Shown here: one piece after another, positions 719 to 41,246 of the stretch
Position numbering within the stretch: the stretch's first letter is position 1
Layout of the letters: each line of letters starts with the position of its first letter
Assembly (NCBI GenBank): GCA_014905825.1
Contig: JACGCN010000007.1
Coordinates: forward strand, 186,001-250,000
Direction of reading: 5' to 3'
Source: Lyophyllum atratum
Lineage: Eukaryota; Basidiomycota; Agaricomycetes; Agaricales; Lyophyllaceae
DNA: 64,000 nucleotides
The notes under the pieces: model-generated
What the model was told of the DNA's origin: nothing
The model's database searches: none
The model's input: only the letters and a program-made list of their open reading frames with translations
Translations under genes and position numbers: made by a program

Positions 719-866
719 TCGTTTATTGGCGTTAACAGGGGTGGTAGGAGTTCAAGCCCGTGATATTTCATTTTTTGAAGAAACGCGAACAGGTAATACG
801 GTACGAACAGCCTGATATACACGCATATACAATGGACGGCGAGCAAAAGACGTGCGATGATAAATA

Positions 867-1154
867 CAATGTTTGTTGTCCCAACATTTCCAAGAACCTG
901 TAGGATTAGCAAAAGACGTTGTCAATGTCGAGAAAAAAATTCCGTTTTTCTTGAATTGTCACTTACAGGAAAACGATGTTCACTCCGGTTTATCGGACGA
1001 CCTTATCCCACAATGTTTGTTGTCCCAACATTTCCAAGAACCTGTAGGATTAGCAAAAGACGTTGTCAATGTCGAGAAAAAAATTCCGTTTTTCTTGAAT
1101 TGTCACTTACAGGAAAACGATGTTCACTCCGGTTTATCGGACGACCTTATCCCA
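867..1154. repeat. Perfect 144-bp tandem duplication (2 copies)
   Basis: Positions 867-1010 and 1011-1154 appear identical base for base. The unit is 144 bp, a multiple of three. The second copy contains the last codons and stop of the minus-strand homeodomain gene, so the first copy is a duplicated 3' end lying downstream of that stop. The apparent identity points to a recent event. Confidence 0.9.
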
Positions 1155-1740
1155 CCAGATGTCGTCGTCCTTCTCTTCGCTCGTTTCGTTTTTTACCGCG
1201 GGCTGTTTCGGTCGTTTCGCAGGTACGCTTTTTTTTGAGGAAGATCCGACGGTCGAAGGTTGACGGTACCTTTTATTTTGGAACCTAAAAGTCTCAAGGC
1301 TTAACGGTGCGTGTGGTAGACCAAAAAAAAAAAATGCACCAGATCTGAACACTTTGAGGAGACATGTCTAATTGTTTCGCAAGAGCCACTCGTTCTTCCG
1401 TAGATGGGTAAGCGACTCTGTTGTAGGTTTCATTGAGCATTTTTAACTGGCGGGCGTCTGCGCGCTCGTGCTTCTTTTTGATTGTAGATTTTCCTCGCGA
1501 TGTCGTCTTCGTGAAAGCGCCTGATTGGGTCAGGACATTGATCAAAATCGCGCTTGCTTGGTTCGTTCCGAGTAGCTCAGGCAACATCTCGGGAAATTTG
1601 TCGGTCAAAATTTGGCGATACTCATCGTACCGTGGGCATTCCGTGATGAGATGCTTGCCGAAGTGAAAGTGTTCGCGACAAGGACATTCAGTAGGTGCAG
1701 AGAGCTCAGTGGCTCCAGCATTTTCGGTCACGCGCCCCAA
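1134..1740 (-). CDS. Homeodomain protein fused in frame to LINE tail
   Basis: Two exons (1740-1340 and 1284-1134) join across a 55-bp GT-AG intron (1285-1339) that interrupts the W-F pair of homeodomain helix 3. The spliced product is 183 residues. Residues ~90-150 form a homeodomain: a basic arm (KKKHERADARQ), helix 1 (LKMLNETYNRVAYPS), helix 2 (EERVALAKQLDMS) and the recognition helix VQIWFQNKRYR, with invariant W48, F49, N51 and R53 present. The C-terminal tail is basic then acidic and ends DDDIWWDKVVR. Upstream in the same frame is a Cys/His motif and the SGAFTK end typical of fungal LINE reverse transcriptases. The native start is uncertain; the listed Met lies inside the LINE-derived part. 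Canonical residues argue against a mating-type TALE protein. Probably a DNA-binding regulator. Confidence 0.6.
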
Positions 1741-17402: not shown

Positions 17403-20030
17403 ATGACCTCAACGCCGGCTCACGTAGGTAGCTCCTCGCATGCTGTATGGGATAGCCAAGAATCGTAAGTATGTTATATAAATGTGTTGGATGTTCCTCC
17501 CACCCTGAAAATTCGGTTTAGAGTTGACACGGTATCACCTCGGATCCGGAAGGACATTGTGGACCACGATCGGTGTGACATGAAATCTATGCTCGGGTTC
17601 TTCTTAAAACGCTGCCTCGAGAAACGGCACGACGAAGTTGACCCCGCGGAACTTCTGGCGAAATGTCTCGAGACCGTCCTTCCCATCTGCAACGATCCAG
17701 AAGTCCGCCAGCTCATAACGCAATAGTGAGTTTTGTGAGCTGAACACGCAGTAAAGTTAGTTAAATTCTCCCATCAGCTGCGGTTTCGCCGATGAAAAAC
17801 AAACCCGGTACCCAAAATTCGTATTCTTGTTCAATCTGATCCTTGGAAAAATTGATAAGCTGCAGACCAAGACTGCGGGTTCTGGCACATTGAAGTCATT
17901 GGGCCTTAGAGGTCCCGATGAAAACGAAATCATGTTTCACTGCAATGACCCTACGGAAATTTCAGCGACGCATAGCAATCTGAGGCGTAAACCTGACATT
18001 GGCATCGTGCCTTTGGAGCATGCTATGACCTGTTTCCCGGACGCCCATGAATACGACGAATGGGATGTGGCCGCGCAGATATCTTCAAGTTGTCTTGAAC
18101 CGAAGTCTGCATTCCAATGGGATCACTTCTTCTCCATACTAGAGTTCAACCTGACCGAGAACAATCTGGCCCAGCCACCGCCGCAGTATACGACAGCTCT
18201 TCAGTCTGTCATACCTGCCATCTGGGACATAAACCATCTATCCCCGAAGAACGAGGCTCTTAATCAGAAAAGGGGAAAACCTAGCCCTACCAGCGCTCCA
18301 CACCCCAAACGGACCGCAGCGGAGAAGTCTTCAGATAGGTGGGACAAATGGTTTGACAAGCTGAAGGCGAGCACTGGTTGGTTTTTTTGTTTCGAATGTG
18401 AACCTTCTTATTGACTTTCGATTGCACTGGCTCCGGAAGCAGCTGCCCAAACATCCAGAGAGCCAAGGATGGAAAAGAGGCTTGCCTCTCAGGACGATGC
18501 TCATGAGCCCACGAAGCGTCTGAAACTTTCTCCAGCATCCTCGAGTACTTCATATACAGATCACGATGACGATGACCTTGGGAAATCTCCTGTGCTCCAA
18601 TGTGCGATGTACGCAGCGGAGATGCTGTGCCGCGGTATTTACGCAACTCATGCCATCACCATCTTAGTTGCTGGTACGTCTACCTTTAGTCTACTTATTA
18701 TCACCCGTTAAGCTTGTCATCAGATGAGATGGCTTGGATATGGTGGTTTGACCGACAAGGAGCCATTCAGACGACTGGCATCGATTTCATTCAGGACTTA
18801 CCATATTTCGTCGTCCTCCTTGTTGCATTCCAACGATTCAACAAGGCAGACTGGGGAATCATTGAGAAGCTCTACAAACCCCCCGGCCATAAAGATGACA
18901 AGCCAAAGATCGCGGTGGAGATCGAACTTGGAGATAAGGTCGTACTTGCTAGACATCGGAGTCCAATGTCAAGCCATTTTAGCCTGGTTGGCCGTGGTAC
19001 GCGTGTCCTTACGGGCGCTGGCTGTGGACGTATCAACAAAAAGAAGGAGTCCTACCATGACGGAAAACCCCTTTCTAACATGGACCTTGTACTCAAATTG
19101 TATTGGCCTGAAGCCACACGTCCAAACGAAGCAGAAATTATTCAGAAGGCCCTCAACATAGACAGCGATATCACGAGAGGCCATCTCCCGAATCTAATCG
19201 CGTCCAACGACTTAGGTTACTTCACCGCGAATATTCGACGTGAACTTGGCATCTTGCCAACTCCAGGTAGCCCCCATAGCGAACCACGATTGTTGCGTGT
19301 CCTGCTTTTAGAAGGCCTCGTCCCAAATGACGAATGGAGAGCGCCGGCTACTTTCATGCGCCTATGGGTTGAATGGTATCAATGTACGTCCGGCGCATAT
19401 ACCATATTATATTCGCCTTATCATGACCCTCCTTCTCTAGGCCACCGTGTGCTATGGGTCAACGGCATCAGACACGGCGACATCAGCCTTGATAACTTGA
19501 TGGTCAACCCGCAAACGAAGATGGGTGTCCTCAATGATTTCGATCTTGCTATTCTGGAAGGCCACCGTATCATCGATGGAGAGTGGACCGGGACTGTGCC
19601 CTTCACGGCGATCGATCTGCTGAGACACCGATTCTTTGGCAGAAAGGTCGAGCGCCTTTATCGTCATGATCTCGAATCTTTCATCTGGGTCTTAGTTATG
19701 GTGACCTTGGAGCATAGCACGACTTACAAGGAACGTCTCAAGAGGTGGCAAACGGGAGATTACAACACTTGCAGGGCTTTCATGGTGGATTTTGCATGGT
19801 CCTCCTTCGAGGACTTGCGGCAGGAAGAAGGGGTCGATCAGCCGCAATGGGAGTTAACTAAAGCCCTTGTAAAGTGGCTGGACGGCAGAATATATTGCCG
19901 AAAGCCATCATATCCACCACGTCCGGAGCAATCAGAGGAGGAAGACCTGCGCGAATTTGAAGATGTTCTGGCGGAATTCTGGTCCCCCGACTGGCCTGCG
20001 TTCAAACGCCTCACCACTGTTATGCCTTGA
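17403..20030 (+). CDS. FunK1-type fungal protein kinase
   Basis: FunK1 kinases are a large Agaricomycete-specific branch of the protein kinase superfamily, without known substrates. Six exons (17403-17464, 17522-17725, 17778-18376, ~18443-18673, 18724-19383, 19441-20030) give about 781 residues. The N-terminal half is unique to the family (GFFLKRCLEKRHDE; YPKFVFLFNLILGKIDKL) and carries a basic KRLKLSP stretch that may act as a nuclear signal. Kinase motifs lie in the C-terminal half: HFSLVGRGTRVL as the glycine-loop region, VLKLYW with the ATP-binding Lys, the catalytic loop IRHGDISLDNLMV (HGDIS in place of HRDLK) and the metal-binding DFDLA. The substrate-binding lobe YRHDLESFIWVL follows. 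The last intron is 57 bp, a multiple of three, and is open if retained. Confidence 0.85.
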
Positions 20031-34343: not shown

Positions 34344-35539
34344 GCTCTCGTGCGGCCAGAGTTAAAAGGGTCTGCGTGAGAGAGGAAGCTGGATAAATCT
34401 CATCGGCTTCGGGAATGAGAAGGCCAGCTGATCACAGACGTCCCCTGCAGATGTCATCATTGGCAATATATATCCTGCTGAGTCAGCGAATCTGGATAAC
34501 CTCTAGGGCACGGCATGAACTGGAAGACGTTCCTTGGACGTTCCCAGATGTGTTAGATTGATATCGTTAATCGCAGTTAATGCAAATGACGTTATCAGGG
34601 CAGGATTGGTCTTGAGTTGAGGTTCCTACTTCCAATTTGTTGCAATTGAATGTTGTTTTCGGCCGGTGGCAATGTTCTTGCTCCCCTTGACGAGATATCT
34701 GATGACGCCTACGATCATGGAGGAAAATTCGGGGTACTTACTAAAATATTCATTCCTCAACAAGGACGGTAGCAAGCGCATACTCTGCCCCTTCGGTGTT
34801 TATCTACTTACCGATGCCCTAGGGTTTAAACACCGGGGGTAGATCCATATCCTAAGAGGTTGAAATTTCGACTCCCCGAGGCGGGAGGACGCGAATGTAC
34901 AAACAGCCAAGACCGTTCAACGTTTCGGAGTGGCGTTGGCGTTAGTCATGAACACTTCCATGGATATGATATTTGATACTGTCGCGACTTCTCTCAGCCT
35001 AGATTTGTGAAAGGGCCCAGGGTGGAGCTATCAGATGACTGCTGAACGTGAACGTTGGTAGGCAGCAAGCAGGGGGCAGCTACTTAAGTACAGAACCTGC
35101 AAAGAACCGAATTGGGATCTGTTTGGATAGTTTAAACTTGGCGCTTTAGGCAAACACGCGCATGCAAAGCTCGAAGGTCGAGATAATCCGGCTTGGAGCC
35201 TTGGATTATAATTTATTCGCCTTCCTCACCGTCGTGACGCTCAGGATGTTTATTCAAGGCTTTCCCGGACACATCTCACTCCGCATACCTGAACTGATGA
35301 AGTTAAGTAGGTATATGTTCACTCGAACGGGCCTCCTTCTCATGCTGATAACGTCTTGGCTTCTCGTACCCCATGGAGAGAGGTGTTTAGAACCCAAGCG
35401 AGCGGGCAGACATAAAAAAGCTTCGAGCCTCGAGGCCCGCTGTACCCCAGGTACAACTGCAAGCTTCTCGATAACTTAGACCTTATTTCGCTTTGTATAA
35501 GCGACGCGATAATGTATTGTTGACTCTATGACCAGCGTA
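34344..35539. other. Intergenic, 1.2 kb
   Basis: Flanks the inverted-repeat element on its left. The longest plus frame (35162-35479) has no motif. AT-rich patches increase toward the element. Confidence 0.5.
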
Positions 35540-36018
35540 CACTGCGGGCATGGGCTTATATATCCCCCGCTCTTAGTTAGAATATATTTTGATGGTATTT
35601 AAAATAAGTGCACCCATTAATCTGCAGAGAAAATCTGGAATATATTTTCGATATCTTCAGACACACGTCCAAGGTAAAATCGACGTCTTTATCAGGAATA
35701 TATTTATGATAACATCAGCTTTTAGCCCTTGGTGAAATTCTGATTAAATTCCTAATTTTATTCCATGAAAGCGACAGATGATACATTGAACGCATTGTGA
35801 TCTGAAGATCGAAGAATCTATCTCTAATATTAGTGATCTTGAAGCATCGGATGTATGGTGACCTTATTCAAAATACAATCCAACGTGTTGTTGAACGTTG
35901 CGCAGGGTCCGGTCTGTTTTTGGTAATTGACTGCTGAGCGCTGGGCATTGTGGCCGGGGTCCCTGGCGCCCCGTGTAAGATCTGTGACCGTGACCCCTGC
36001 CCATCGACTGCTCTGTAC
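35540..36018 (+). repeat. Left terminal inverted repeat
   Basis: 479 bp, outer end CACTGCGGGC. Matches the reverse complement of 40762-41243. Similarity fades at CTGCT(C/T)(T/C)GTAC on the inner side. Confidence 0.9.
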
Positions 36019-36823
36019 GTTGACATTACTCGAAGTATTGAGGAGATGCATACAGATCGCTGGGTCTAAACGCTCGAGTTCCACTCATCGGTTGAATTTC
36101 GATACATAATAGATTAGAGAAATACACCGGTTGATGTACAAGACCTAGAGAGAAATAATAAAAACATCCCCGCTCTCGACAAGCAAAGATCCAAAACCGT
36201 TCATCCAACGTTCATCAGCCGATGGAAAGGATAAGGAATCATGATCATATAACTCACCCCGAAGAGGGGCAGCAGACAATACTCTGCGAGTGTAGGCTCG
36301 AAGGCTATGGCCGAGGATTGTCGCGTGCCAGGCTGTACTCGATCCGCACTACCATCCGACAAGCCAGGCCTGAGCGAGGTCGTCGAAGATTAAATATTGA
36401 CACAGGTCCTGCAGACCTACACGAGCTGAATAGATTGCGTAAATGCCAATAAAATAGTACGGGATATGGAGCTGAGTCAATATACACGCTACTAGACCAG
36501 CGCCTCGAAACTCGGTAGATAACGATGTACAACATGTTTTACAAACTCGTTCTAAGTATAGGTATTGCGGGATAGCAGTCCATTGTACCGGCAAGGCACA
36601 TACAGAACCATGGGTATAGGTGTTCAGGCGATATATGGTTGACTCGATATATGGTTGACTTGACTTTTTGCAAAGGTTATTGGCGCCAGGCTCAAGAGCG
36701 AGCAACTCAGCATGCATCACGGACTATCACCCAAGGTAAGAAACCAAAGCATACATCTAACGAAAGAGCTTACCAGCAATAACGCACCCGAGCACGTTCC
36801 CATACGAAAGCGGAAAACAGCAT
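36019..36823. other. Element interior without recognised gene
   Basis: This lies between the left arm and the coiled-coil fragment. A short tandem repeat, CGATATATGGTTGACT, occurs near 36.63-36.66 kb. Frames on both strands lack motifs, and no transposase signature was seen. Confidence 0.5.
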
Positions 36824-38730
36824 CTAAGACGGGTTCTCATAAGCCGGTGGTGGAATCGACGGATCCTCCACAGCCTGCGCCGGTGCCCGACTCCGCAGCT
36901 CAGTCTGCAACTTCCGAATCTCCGTCTTCAACCCAAATATCTCCCTCTGCAGCGGCTCGCCCGAAGCCTGCAGGTGCGTAATCGGCTGCCTCACCTGCCT
37001 CAAACTACTCTTCAACGCCTCATTCTCATGCGTCACATCCCTTAGCACCCTCTGCAGCTCAGTATCCTCACTCGACGTCTGCAACTGCTTCGTCAGCCCC
37101 TCCAGCTCCTGCACCTGCGTCCTTAGCCTCTGATTCTCATGCCTCAGCCCATCCTGCGCCACATGCACATTTCCCGTCCCCGACGACAGCAGCAAACTCG
37201 CCGTAGACCTCTCCATATCCCTCAACCGCGCCTTCAGCGCCTCGTTCTCCCTTGTCACATCCCCCATCAGGATCTGCATCTCCCCCGCATTAGTCCCCGC
37301 GTCCAACGGCTGACTCCGACTAATCGTCCGCTCCATCTCCCCCGCGCGCTTCCTCAACTCCTCATTCCCCTCCTCCAACACCCCGACCATCCTCTTGAGC
37401 CCAACAACCTCCTCCAGGAACCGCACAGCCGCCGCCTCTGCTTCCTCCCGCACCTCCCTTAGCCGCGCGACGATGTCCCTGTTCTCCTGCGCCGCACCGT
37501 CTAACGTCTTTGAGGCTTCGTCAAGCCTTGACTGCAGCGGTTCGAGCTCGGCGACCCGACGTGCGAGCTCCGTGTTCTCCCGCATGAGGTCCGCTGCCAT
37601 GGGGTGGACGGCTTCGTTCGCCTGGAGCAGCTGCGAGGTGATCTGCTCCATCTCCTGGATCTTTGAGAGGAGGGCCTTGTTCTCTTTAGTGAGAGTGGCG
37701 TTGGCGGCTTGCATATCGCGTCGATCGCCGAGTTAGGCTGCGAGTTCTTCGAGCTGTGACGTGAGGGATAGGCTTTGATGTTGAAGGCTCTGGTATTCGC
37801 CGGGATCGATGGTAGGCCGTCCGTACATGGATTGGACACGGCGGGCCGGCTTACTGACATTCCCCAGGGGACCTTGGTGGTAGAAGTCAGAAATGATAGA
37901 CATTCGCTGGAGGAGGGACGTACTAGTAGGTGTTGTGGGATCAGTCTGATGGCGTCAAGCATAGGTGCGGAAGAAGGTTTGGGGGGTAATGGCGGAACTT
38001 CGTCGAACGGGTTTTCCGTGGTGGTAGCTGATGTTCCATGGTCCGAGACTGTGTATGCAGATTTAGGTCGTAACAAAGGCTTGGTGCTCAATCGTGGTAG
38101 AGGGGATGTGAGGGGTATCGGTGCACCGCTGAGGCTACGTCGAAGTTCGCTCCGAGGCTGTTTCGGAGCGCTGATAGTGGACGCACATTGTCGTGGAGTC
38201 GCTGAAGACTTGCTCCGCAGGGACGGGGGGACTAACGAAGGGGGTAATTTGCGGTGTAGCTCGGCCCCGTTCCGCCTTGGCTCAATCAGGTGAATGGCTA
38301 TCGCAAATCCATCCCGGGTGGGGCGATTGTCCTTGTTGAAGTCCGCGAGATCCCTGGCAGGCAAATGATAAGCTAAGTCTTGAAGGGGAGGTCATACGCG
38401 AGGTACCATATATGGGCCAGATCCCCGGGCGATAATTGAAATCCCATCAAGAACCGTGCAGCGACGTCTTCATCCACGAACCCTGCCCCCTGAGAATCTA
38501 GAGAATCGAAATGCTGATCGGCGGACGCCTTTTCCTCACGCGTGACGGCTTATTCGTCCCCTTGGCCAGCTGAAAGCGGCGGTGTCGCTGGCGGGGCCGT
38601 AGGATTGCCGGATGCAGAGGGAAGCTTGCGGGCGGGTTTCTGGGGCCTGGACGGTTTCCTCTGCACTGGCGAAGAAGGGGTAGAGCAGGTCGGACCATAC
38701 GTCTTGAACGAAGTTACGATATCTCCGTAG
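36824..38730 (-). pseudogene. EH-domain (Ede1/Eps15-like) endocytic adaptor fragment
   Basis: EH-domain adaptors organise clathrin-coated pits. Minus-strand exons encode an EH domain: HFDSLDSQGAGFVDEDVAAR, LMGFQLSPGDLAHIW, then after a short intron DLADFNKDNRPTRDGFAIAI and HLI, with the EF-hand-like loop. A Pro/Ser-rich linker (NPFDEVPPLPPKPSS) and a ~300-residue coiled coil (MQAANATLTKENKALLSKIQ and following) end at AYENPS before a stop at 36824. Two in-frame ochre codons break it: at 38552-38550 before AVTREEK and at 37735-37733 between EELAA and LGDRRD. Both are consistent with CAA-to-TAA, i.e. C-to-T change. The usual additional N-terminal EH domains and a C-terminal UBA are missing. It is a captured and decayed piece. 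Confidence 0.7.
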
Positions 38731-39130
38731 ATCTGCTCGACGCTCCGAGCTCGTGGAGGGCAGGGAGCTCAGCTGGCCTGACGGTAAGCCTTGTATAAGT
38801 TACATCGCCAATGCAAAACTGTGCCTGTCGATGGCGCCTCTTTTGTGGGTATCAGCGATTTCCCTGGTTCAGATGTAGGTGTGGGTATGTAGGCGCGTGC
38901 TGGCTGAAGCAAATCCAGATGCGCTTACCGTAATGATATTCATGGTGTTTGGATTTCTCGTGATGAGATTGCTGACTTCTTCGAGTAAGAGGCGAGCTCT
39001 AAGCGGCAGGACTCGATATGTGAGCGAACATGCAACCACCTGTCCGACACGAGATACTCACTGGATGCTTCCGTGGCGATGCGCTCAAGATATCGTTGAC
39101 GAAGCTGTTTAAACTTTAAAATAGCCATGG
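38731..39130 (-). pseudogene. Unrecognised coding-like exons inside the element
   Basis: Minus-strand frames read FKQLRQRYLERIATEAS, then after a likely intron TRLLLEEVSNLITRNPNTMN. Further downstream, overlapping the EH fragment's upstream side, they read RRADLRRYRNFVQDVWSDLL and YPFFAS. The composition is convincingly coding, but I do not recognise the family, and the pieces do not join into a complete gene. Confidence 0.35.
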
Positions 39131-39265
39131 CCTTACTAGTTTTGTTTCTTAGGAACCTGATCGATGTTCGATCACCGCTGCTGGAGACTATATTGGTATG
39201 TGTTCACAAGGTCGATGTGCGTGACGATGCGTGCAGGATCCCTACATGCCTACAGTTCAAAGTTA

Positions 39266-40720
39266 TTAGAGAAGGTGGTCGTAGAGAGATGGACGTACCA
39301 GAGCAGTATTCCACGCACCGAGATACACCGAGCAGTCGCCCTTCTCATCAACGGCGCGCTCGGGGGCTCCGTCACTCGCATTCGCATGCGCGTGCTCCTC
39401 GACGTTCAACAGCCTCATCGGGCGTGCATGGTGCGGCATCGGCGGGTGCGGAGGCATCCGACTCCCACTCCCACTCCCCCCCTCACCCGCACCCCAGATA
39501 GACGACTGCGACCCACTCGCAGACCGTTTCGGCATCAATGGCCGCCCAGGCAACGAAGGCAGCGACGGCGCATACGCATCTTGGAGGTATGGTGATTGCC
39601 CCAGTCTCGTGCCCTTGCCCCGCACAGTCGCAGACGCATAATGTCCCGACGCACCTCCGCTGCACTCGCAATCCCAAGCTTCCGCGCAGCCGTGTCCATG
39701 GACTCCGCGTCGTCCATGCGATCCCAATCCTCCTCCTCGCCCGTGCTACTACTCGACCGTCCCGAGGCAGTGCGCACCTGTATATGAGAGTGGTGTGTTG
39801 GGTGGTAGTGGTTGTGTTCCCATAACTCTGGCAGGAGATAGGGTGAGGCAGGTTTAGCCTGACGGAAGATGGAAGCGAGGGAGGGACAGCGTGGGGATGG
39901 CTTGCTGGCGCTCGAAAGCGAAGAAGGACTGTAAGGCGATGTTGGCCGATCGAGACGTACTGAATCCGGGCCCGAGCTGGTCTTGGCGCATCTGCGGCCT
40001 TGGATGGGTGGCACCCGTGGATGGGGGTCCCGATGGCTATCCATCAAAGAGTTATCCGTCGTGCTGAGCGACGTCGTCGACATCAGCGCCGGGTTTGGTA
40101 GCGGGGGTGGCGGCGCTCCCCACTCTTGAGAATGCTTGAGATCCCGAAGCATATCCCTCAACCCCGTCATCACCAACCGACTTGCCCTTCTCTATACGTC
40201 CGACTTCGAGTGTAAAGGATGTGAATTAGTATACGGAACAAGGATGGAAGAAAAGACGTACACTTCGAGATGTCCAAGATGTCCTCAATGATAAGGAGCA
40301 GTGACCTCGCCAAACTGTGGACAAGCAGCGAACTCTCCCGCAGCGATCGATTGAGGTCCGAGTCCAGCGTCAACTCGGTCATGCCGATGACACCATTCAT
40401 GGGTGTCCTGAGGGAAGTACTCAACGTCAGTCAATGCAGGTTTCGAAAGAACGCACGGACATACCTATTGGACATGCTCGCCAAAAACTCGGACTTACTC
40501 CTGTCTAACCTCCCTCCAACCTGTTTGAAAAGCCGCTTGCGATCCCCTCAGTATGTGTGATTCGGCGTTGGCAGTGTATAGTCTTGATGAATGGCTTGGC
40601 AAGTTGAGAAGAACTCGTTCTGTCATCAGAACTCAAAAGCCGAGGGAGAAGGTAGGGATAATATGCGTGGACCGCAGTCCGCCAGATCAGGCCGAGGATA
40701 CGGGGCTCGGGGCCGTCTGC
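39266..40720 (-). pseudogene. Histidine kinase fragment with lost phospho-acceptor box
   Basis: The minus strand encodes a HisKA dimerisation domain: SKSEFLASMSN, then RTPMNGVIGMTELTLDSDLN and SLLVHSLARSLLLIIEDILD followed by ISK. In working kinases the H-box reads MSHEIRTPMNG; here an intron separates MSN from (L)RTPMNG and the histidine is absent under every splice choice I tried. The catalytic HATPase domain and a receiver are missing. What follows is a Pro/Ser/His-rich region (SQEWGAPPPPLPNPALMSTT and beyond) to the end near 39266. Upstream frames (40.5-40.72 kb) hold stops. It is a captured fragment of a hybrid kinase. Confidence 0.65.
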
Positions 40721-40761
40721 AATGTTGGACAAACCCATGGTTCAAGTTGACGACTGCCAGT

Positions 40762-41243
40762 GTACGGAGCAGTCGATGGGCAGGGGTCACGGTCACAGAT
40801 CTTACACGGGGCGCCAGGGACCCCGGCCACAATGCCCAGCGCTCAGCAGTCAATTACCAAAAACAGACCGGACCCTGCGCAACGTTCAACAACACGTTGG
40901 ATTGTATTTTGAATACTTAAGGTCACCATACATCCGATGCTTCAAGATCACTAATATTAGAGATAGATTCTTCGATCTTCGATCACAATGCGTTCAATGT
41001 ATCATCTGTCGCTTTCATGGAATAAAATTAGGAATTTAATCAGAATTTCACCAAGGGCTAAAAGCTGATGTTATCATAAATATATTCCTGATAAAGACGT
41101 CGATTTTACCTTGGACGTGTGTCTGAAGATATCGAAAATATATTCCAGATTTTCTCTGCAGATTAATGGGTGCACTTATTTTAAATACCATCAAAATATA
41201 TTCTAACTAAGAGCGGGGGATATATAAGCCCATGCCCGCAGTG
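40762..41243 (-). repeat. Right terminal inverted repeat
   Basis: 482 bp; its reverse complement matches 35540-36018. Differences seen are one extra AAGT-like insertion near 40.92 kb and a 1-2 bp change near 40.98 kb. Outer end GCAGTG, followed by the GTA duplication. Confidence 0.9.
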
Positions 41244-41246
41244 GTA

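What the first reader, a model, noticed from the sequence alone, without database searches (positions are those of the whole stretch)
35540..41243. A 5.7-kb CACTG-ended inverted-repeat element carrying pieces of two host genes
Two near-identical ~480-bp inverted arms with CACTG ends and a GTA/GTA flank bound a segment made of dead fragments of an EH-domain gene and a histidine kinase plus unidentified exons, all on one strand. That is the layout of a gene-capturing (Pack-type) transposon. Ends and 3-bp duplication suit the CACTA/EnSpm superfamily, yet the arms are far longer than usual for it and no transposase is seen. Near-identity of the arms implies recent mobility or arm conversion, while the cargo is decayed.
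Basis: partly seen in the sequence, partly recalled or inferred. Interest (0 to 1): 0.9.

Follow-up and report, generated by a model that had tools for sequence, protein, structure and literature searches.

The report
Gene-capturing CACTA transposon in a mushroom
In the genome of a mushroom, most likely Lyophyllum atratum, a 5.7-kb mobile DNA element holds copies of pieces of at least three of the fungus's own genes between two long mirror-image ends, and it is likely moved by the enzyme encoded in 40-kb relatives in the same genome.

Summary
The finding is real and mostly read correctly. The window element (35540-41243) has 479/482-bp inverted arms, a GTA duplication, and an empty site with a single GTA on contig C2. 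The same arms bound 16 resolved elements (4.1-54 kb) in the 64.8-Mb genome; 16 of 16 have perfect 3-bp duplications. Four giants (40-54 kb) carry a Tnp2/Transposase_21-type ORF, intact and identical in three; one of these three also has an empty site. So this is a fungal Pack-CACTA family with its likely transposase source. The window cargo is a mosaic: an EH/coiled-coil gene segment (2.67 kb), an unidentified gene (0.82 kb) and a histidine-kinase segment (0.31 kb), each 80-87% identical to a pair of loci elsewhere, plus a 44-bp fragment. A sister element shares the kinase/unidentified-gene fusion, annotated in public data as a 232-aa protein. Arms of older elements evolve in concert (15:0:0 informative sites for window and sister), so arm identity does not date the insertion. 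The cargo compared between the sisters evolves neutrally. Capture by template-switching gap repair and trans-mobilisation are inferred. The kind is known from plants; long arms, giant relatives and a mushroom host make it a variant.

The parts
35537..35539 (.). left copy of the 3-bp target-site duplication (GTA)
   Evidence: equals the right copy; single GTA at C2:255836-255838
35540..36018 (+). left terminal inverted arm (479 bp), begins CACTGCGGGC
   Evidence: 39 matches to the arm in the genome
36063..36261 (-). outer part of older internal module D, parts of which are shared with other elements; ends at a splice-donor-like GGTGAGT on the minus strand; origin unresolved
36260..38929 (-). 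cargo A: EH-domain/coiled-coil gene segment
   Evidence: 86% to C119:533077-535745 (2.67 kb), 85% to C2:551811-554413; EH 19.7 bits, below cut-off; coiled-coil families
36824..37732 (-). 302-codon open frame within cargo A (coiled coil)
   Evidence: 90% and 92% aa identity to the C119 and C2 donor loci; dN 0.046, dS 0.33 (NG86) against the C2 locus
38928..39111 (-). inner part of module D; parts of it also in elements C107, C130, C77b, C77c, C62, C64
39332..39375 (.). cargo E: 44-bp fragment of a fourth locus pair
   Evidence: 91% to C13:1089162-1089205, 89% to C46:334071-334114
39373..40193 (-). cargo B: segment of an unidentified Agaricomycete gene
   Evidence: 87% to C79:193158-194003 and 86% to C75:2476334-2477176; protein relatives P0122-P0127
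40194..40502 (-). cargo C: histidine-kinase (HisKA) segment, abutting B at 40193|40194
   Evidence: 81% to C35:7338-7657 and 80% to C116:13870-14189; HisKA 34.1 bits; junction read
40503..40754 (.). right subterminal region, parts shared with elements C107, C35, C77a, C77b, C62, C64, C114
40762..41243 (-). right terminal inverted arm (482 bp), ends GCCCGCAGTG
41244..41246 (.). right copy of the 3-bp target-site duplication (GTA)

Best explanation
The segment is a non-autonomous CACTA-type (Pack-type) DNA transposon that is missing from a second copy of its site on contig C2, holds segments 80-87% identical to at least three host loci, and is likely mobilised in trans by the Tnp2 transposase of 40-kb members of the same family. 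Shown: bounded element, 3-bp duplication, empty site, family of 16 resolved elements with the same termini, parent loci still present as contig pairs, sister element with the same B-C fusion at another site, transposase ORFs inside giants with the same ends, concerted evolution of the two arms in older elements. Inferred: after a double-strand break in an element, gap repair switches template to unrelated host DNA and stitches it in (blunt or very short-homology joints, layered cargo); the same repair, using the other arm as template, keeps the two arms alike; the Tnp2 protein of the giants then cuts and pastes the product.
For: 16 of 16 resolved elements with perfect 3-bp duplications. Terminal 23-mer: 44 sites at up to 3 mismatches, 35 exact, 0 in the reversed control. 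Empty site of the window element on C2: left-flank match ends at 255838, right-flank match begins at 255836, one GTA. Empty site of the 40-kb C60 element on C89: the 600-base joined flanks align 1-600 at 98%. Parent loci. Layering: C107 has B, C and the right end (90%) but not A. Intact, identical 559-aa ORF in C60, C63 and C67, a 72% relative with one stop in C119b; 119 of the 120 relatives listed (of 268) carry PF02992; the C119b copy itself scores 42.4 bits on Transposase_21. No Transposase_21 or Tnp2 match lies inside the window element. B|C joint blunt or at most 1 bp. C35 element: a 3.5-kb insert, mostly C77a-like, sits exactly between adjacent C46 positions 21595|21596. Arms, within:side:cross, 15:0:0 for window/C107 and 6:0:0 for C114/C82, C130/C77c and C62/C77b. 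Another element's interior (C62) also matches locus pairs elsewhere, two pieces in inverted relation.
Against: Arms of 385-582 bp are far longer than the short ends usual for CACTA (usual length recalled). A direct Pfam scan of the 559-aa C67 ORF gave no family at E<=0.05, and the whole-genome DUF4218 search listed only C100, not the giants; the assignment rests on relatives and on the C119b copy. No movement, expression or protein-DNA binding was seen. Only two empty sites were tested, both in the same assembly. Recent copies do not show arm conversion: C60/C63/C67 0 within against 13 side or crossed, C35/C46 0 within against 3 crossed; C77a has mismatched arms (80%). The window arm is only 83-84% identical to the arms of C60, C63 and C67 over 349-350 bp, so cross-mobilisation is an inference. 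Joints were read by eye at A, B and C only, without a chance test. A 5.2-kb stretch of the C67 giant outside the family matched only old or short host pieces (e.g. 71% over 1.45 kb, 94-96% over 114 bp), so recent capture by the giants is not shown. C62's matches include many at 67-79%, so that cargo may derive from a repeated family.
Confidence: 0.9

Rival explanations
1. Capture by macrotransposition: two family members landed near each other and their outer ends were used together, taking the DNA between them along (the model for plant Pack-CACTA).
For: Described for plant Pack-TYPE elements (PMC8903248, section 9). Two family members lie 3.8 kb apart on C77 and several arms cluster on C1.
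Against: Segments A, B and C come from three different contig pairs and abut each other or module D without an arm remnant at the joints read; B and C join at consecutive bases. A 3.5-kb piece sits between adjacent positions in C35.
Confidence: 0.12
2. The cargo is not captured: an ancestral EH-kinase locus stood here and unrelated inverted repeats flank it.
For: Cargo segments A, B and C all read on one strand.
Against: C2 has an uninterrupted site with one GTA; the parents lie at other loci; the sister element at another site shares B and C.
Confidence: 0.01
3. The element belongs to another DNA-transposon group found in mushrooms (Plavaka or KDZ) and only resembles CACTA.
For: Plavaka and Kyakuja occur in Agaricomycetes and Plavaka transposases resemble EnSpm ones (PMC12730594, abstract and sections 15 and 20).
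Against: Plavaka termini are TGT..ACA or CATCA..TGATG, here CACTG..CAGTG with 3 bp; fungal EnSpm is described as CAC..GTG with 3 bp; the associated protein family is Transposase_21.
Confidence: 0.05
4. The near-identical arms mean a very young insertion rather than arm conversion.
For: 1 mismatch in 478 aligned arm positions; the insertion is missing from the C2 copy of the site.
Against: Arms are inherited through transposition, so they should keep older left/right differences; instead 15 of 15 two-against-two sites group the two arms of each element in the window/C107 pair, while the shared right-hand 1.8 kb (B, C and the right arm) differs by 83 mismatches and 93 gap positions in 1,827 columns.
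Confidence: 0.1

Closest known systems
Pack-CACTA / Pack-TYPE elements of plants (PMC8903248: passages and section 9 read)
   Same: Non-autonomous, CACTA-like ends, coding DNA from several host loci, related autonomous elements in the same genome.
   Different: Mushroom host; arms of several hundred bp (the Arabidopsis search there used CACTACAA ends); arms of older elements evolve in concert; transposase-bearing relatives of 40 kb or more; capture joints look like template switching rather than fused neighbours.
EnSpm/CACTA of fungi (PMC12730594: abstract, sections 15 and 20 read)
   Same: CAC..GTG termini and 3-bp duplications; can carry a captured gene (TET/JBP dioxygenase).
   Different: That paper's subject is one dioxygenase gene; here fragments of several host genes form a mosaic in non-autonomous copies.
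Enlarged EnSpm of the red alga Chondrus crispus, 16-20 kb (one passage of the review PMC6431247)
   Same: CACTA elements larger than usual.
   Different: Here 40-54 kb.
Gene-capturing Helitrons of Pleurotus ostreatus (PMC4289320: search listing and start of abstract only)
   Same: Mushroom transposons that capture and carry gene fragments.
   Different: Helitrons move by rolling circle; this element has inverted arms and a 3-bp duplication.
Pack-TIRs of animals (PMC8277862: passages read)
   Same: Gap filling with template switching proposed, with microhomology of median 2 bp in part of the cases.
   Different: Single-copy cases there are mostly close to their parents; here a multicopy family with parents on other contigs or 306 kb away.

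Membership tests
CACTA/EnSpm superfamily | termini CAC(T)..(A)GTG | tested here: met
   CACTGCGGGC..GCCCGCAGTG; exact 23-mer at both ends in 15 of 16 elements; C119b has CACCGGGGAC
CACTA/EnSpm superfamily | 3-bp target-site duplication | tested here: met
   16 of 16
CACTA/EnSpm superfamily | Tnp2/Transposase_21 transposase in autonomous members | tested here: met
   559-aa ORF in C60/C63/C67; 119 of 120 listed relatives PF02992; C119b 42.4 bits. The ORF itself gave no direct Pfam match; DUF4218 next to it is weak (20.5 bits, cut-off 27) and absent from the genome listing
CACTA/EnSpm superfamily | conserved acidic residues, C(2)C and H(3-4)H motifs in the transposase | tested here: inconclusive
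   D253, D348 and C368-x2-C371 invariant in 12 of 12 aligned; the last catalytic E and the H(3-4)H motif were not identified
CACTA/EnSpm superfamily | short terminal inverted repeats (usual, not strictly defining; recalled) | tested here: not met
   arms of 385-582 bp in the 12 fully read elements
Pack-TYPE element | non-autonomous, no transposase | tested here: met
   no Transposase_21 or Tnp2 match inside it among 20 and 45 genome places. Of its six ORFs of 150 aa or more, four were scanned singly without a transposase family, a fifth in a pooled scan (where one RVT_2 match was not traced to its ORF), one was not scanned
Pack-TYPE element | contains coding DNA from host genes elsewhere | tested here: met
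   A, B, C with parent loci as contig pairs; HisKA
Pack-TYPE element | mobilised with its cargo | tested here: met
   B-C fusion at two sites, each with its own duplication; empty site. Movement itself was not observed
Plavaka | TGT..ACA or CATCA..TGATG termini | tested here: not met
   CACTG..CAGTG; criterion from PMC12730594
Pack-MULE | about 9-bp duplication (recalled) | tested here: not met
   duplication is 3 bp and not 4 in 12 of 12 tested
Starship | tyrosine-recombinase gene (PMC12134995, start of abstract in search listing) | not tested
   no dedicated search; none appeared in the Pfam scan of 69 C67 ORFs

The most novel reading that the evidence does not exclude
A mushroom genome runs a complete gene-shuffling system: 40-kb Tnp2-bearing CACTA giants that move intact, plus small partners that stitch exons from several chromosomes into new spliced genes, with a break-repair process that both captures the cargo and keeps the long arms identical; the kinase-fusion gene annotated in the sister element would be one of its products.
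Probability: 0.35. Interest if true: 0.8.

Novelty: new variant of a known kind. Interest (0 to 1): 0.62.

Why it matters
Pack-type capture of host exons by inverted-repeat transposons is described for plants and animals in the papers read here. In this genome the small capturing elements, the giant transposase carriers, the parent loci and the empty sites sit in one assembly that appears to hold two haplotypes, so the order of captures, the joints and the likely source of mobility can be read directly. The concerted evolution of the arms also warns against dating such elements by arm identity.

Tried and rejected
An ancestral EH-kinase locus at this place was rejected by the empty site. Dating the insertion by arm identity was rejected by the quartet test. 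Selection to keep the cargo: cargo A's 302-codon frame is constrained against the C2 locus (dN 0.046, dS 0.33 by NG86; 0.041 and 0.55 by YN00), but the two parent loci are themselves only 93% identical there, A being 91% identical to C2, so most of that divergence probably predates capture; cargo B between the two sister elements fits neutrality (24 nonsynonymous, 10 synonymous, p=0.55). Capture from another species was considered for A and dropped for the same reason. A rule that captures happen at splice donors (seen on both sides of A, read) was not pursued: one case only, and the B|C joint does not show it. Whether module D is a captured host gene or an old element relic stayed open. Whether A entered before or after the window/C107 split stayed open: C107 breaks off at the same place where A begins. 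Solved structures: no relative of the transposase ORF (best E 0.45). A published fungal Pack-CACTA was not seen in the listings of ten paper searches (several listings were cut, e.g. 20 of 69, 15 of 193, 12 of 59, 8 of 17). The CACTA hits of PMC10021994 were a telomere repeat. Script one search failed before its alignment.
Full report
Observation. The window element spans 35540-41243 (5,704 bp). Its arms align over 479 and 482 bp with 477 identities, 1 mismatch and 5 gap positions, begin CACTGCGGGC, and are flanked by GTA on both sides.

Host. The window is contig C119:186001-250000 of an unnamed 64.76-Mb genome. A protein read from the window matches FPV67DRAFT_1096837 of Lyophyllum atratum on a contig of 2,139,371 bases, the length of C119; a second L. 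atratum protein (P0122) lies on a contig of 230,646 bases, the length of C107. The species name is inferred from these coincidences. The parent loci of A, B, C and E each come as a pair on two contigs, and the flanks of the window element are 90% and 94% identical to a stretch of C2, so the assembly appears to hold two diverged haplotypes.

Family. The left arm has 39 matches: 32 form 16 inverted pairs, 4 lie in a C1 cluster that was not resolved, 3 are fragments. Of the 16 elements, 12 were fully read (4.1-22.7 kb) and 4 are giants with both ends read: C67, C63 and C60 (about 40 kb) and C119b (about 54 kb); of these only C67 was read through most of its interior. All 16 have a perfect 3-bp duplication; in the 12 tested for it none extends to 4 bp. 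The terminal 23-mer occurs 44 times with up to 3 mismatches, 35 times exactly, and never in the reversed control.

Empty sites. On C2 the left-flank match ends at 255838 and the right-flank match begins at 255836, so one GTA stands where the window has two; the letters agree (left flank aligned, right flank compared by eye). For the 40-kb C60 element, the joined flanks match C89 continuously over 600 bases at 98%. Two of two sites tested thus exist without the element.

Transposase. C60, C63 and C67 hold an identical 559-aa open frame without stops; C119b holds a 72% relative with one stop. The frame itself gave no direct Pfam match at E<=0.05, but 119 of the 120 listed relatives (of 268) carry PF02992, Transposase_21, and two of them are named 'Transposase family tnp2'; the C119b copy scores 42.4 bits on that family. 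D253, D348, C368 and C371 are invariant in 12 of 12 aligned sequences. A weak DUF4218 match (20.5 bits, cut-off 27) lies next to it in C67, but the whole-genome search for that family listed only C100. That this protein moves the window element is inferred from the shared ends.

Cargo. By DNA search: A (36260-38929) is 86% and 85% identical to C119:533077-535745 and C2:551811-554413; B (39373-40193) 87% and 86% to C79 and C75; C (40194-40502) 81% and 80% to C35 and C116; a 44-bp piece E (39332-39375) 91% and 89% to C13 and C46. A contains an EH-like stretch (19.7 bits, below cut-off) and a coiled coil, C a HisKA stretch (34.1 bits). A, B and C read on the minus strand. The parents remain in place, so the segments are copies. 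A lies inside an older module D shared in part with other elements; whether D is host-derived is open. Other elements have cargo-like stretches too: C62 matches locus pairs on C104 and C77 at 86-90%, two pieces in inverted relation, beside many matches at 67-79%; a peptidase C54 stretch in C46, MIOS-like and APH-like ones in C35, Spt5-like and GH30-like ones in C67. For a 5.2-kb stretch of C67 with the Spt5 piece, matches outside the family were old or short. C46 and C114 contain a long coding stretch between 99.7%-identical 321-323-bp direct repeats, like a nested retrotransposon.

Layers and joints. C107 shares the right end, C and B (90%) but lacks A. The B|C joint is blunt or at most 1 bp. 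A's ends coincide with splice-donor-like GGTAAGC (donor side) and GGTGAGT (module D) (read); this is one case and may be coincidence. The C35 element has a 3.5-kb insert, mostly C77a-like, between positions that are adjacent in C46. These features suit template switching during gap repair, the model discussed for animals (PMC8277862, passages), better than fusion of neighbouring insertions (PMC8903248, section 9).

Arms. In 11 of 16 elements the two arms are at least 98% identical over the first 360 bp; C107 has 97.4%, the three 40-kb giants 95.6-95.8%, and C77a 80.2%, its two arms being nearest to different subfamilies. Two-against-two sites, as within-element: same-side: crossed, are 15:0:0 for window/C107; 6:0:0 for C114/C82, C130/C77c and C62/C77b; 4:0:0 for C64/C77b; 2:1:0 for C62/C64; 25:0:0 for C60/C119b; but 0:0:3 for C35/C46, and 0:13:0, 0:0:13 and 0:0:13 among C60, C63 and C67 (11 comparisons, those that share an element are not independent). 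So arms appear homogenised over time but not at each copying.

A possible product. The sister element C107 encodes P0122 (FPV67DRAFT_1789929, 232 aa), which begins with a HisKA stretch and continues with B. It is a gene model; expression is unknown. The window copy differs at the histidine of the H-box region (reading). B fits neutrality between the two elements (174 codons, dN 0.064, dS 0.081; 24 nonsynonymous, 10 synonymous, p=0.55).

Place among known systems. CACTA-like ends, 3-bp duplication and Tnp2 relatives make it EnSpm/CACTA; absence of a transposase and host-gene cargo make it Pack-type. Fungal EnSpm elements with CAC..GTG ends and 3-bp duplications are described (PMC12730594, section 15). 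In the listings of ten paper searches no fungal Pack-CACTA was seen. The long arms with concerted evolution and the 40-54-kb relatives are the unusual points.

Noticed in passing
G000:C24:1076814-1077076 and C71:768835-768983: Two inverted pairs of diverged CACTGCGGGCAT-like ends spanning only 263 and 149 bp, like miniature elements of a related family.
   Followed up: no
G000:C77:212059-219609 (L040, L041): Element with arms only about 80% identical to each other, each nearest to a different subfamily: a chimeric element with a perfect CGT duplication.
   Followed up: partly
G000:C1:1653874-1726232: Cluster of four arms, three with the same junction sequence in opposite orientations, one truncated; partial transposase fragments nearby.
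   Followed up: partly
L035 (C46 element) and L033-L034 (C114 element): Nested sequences with 99.7%-identical 321-323-bp direct repeats around coding stretches of 998 and 1,417 aa, like young LTR retrotransposons inserted into the elements. A pooled Pfam scan gave one RVT_2 match that was not traced to its ORF.
   Followed up: partly
L036:6441-8845 (C46 element): Tc5/pogo-like transposase pieces (HTH_Tnp_Tc5, DDE_1) inside the 22.7-kb element.
   Followed up: no
G000:C35:24362, C67:20044, C1:4652354, C2:1741789: Other Transposase_21 matches lie within about 20-45 kb of contig ends, possibly subtelomeric.
   Followed up: no
window 866-1155: Perfect tandem duplication of a 144-bp unit.
   Followed up: no
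window 18690-20030: Fungal-type protein kinase (Pkinase_fungal) ORF.
   Followed up: no
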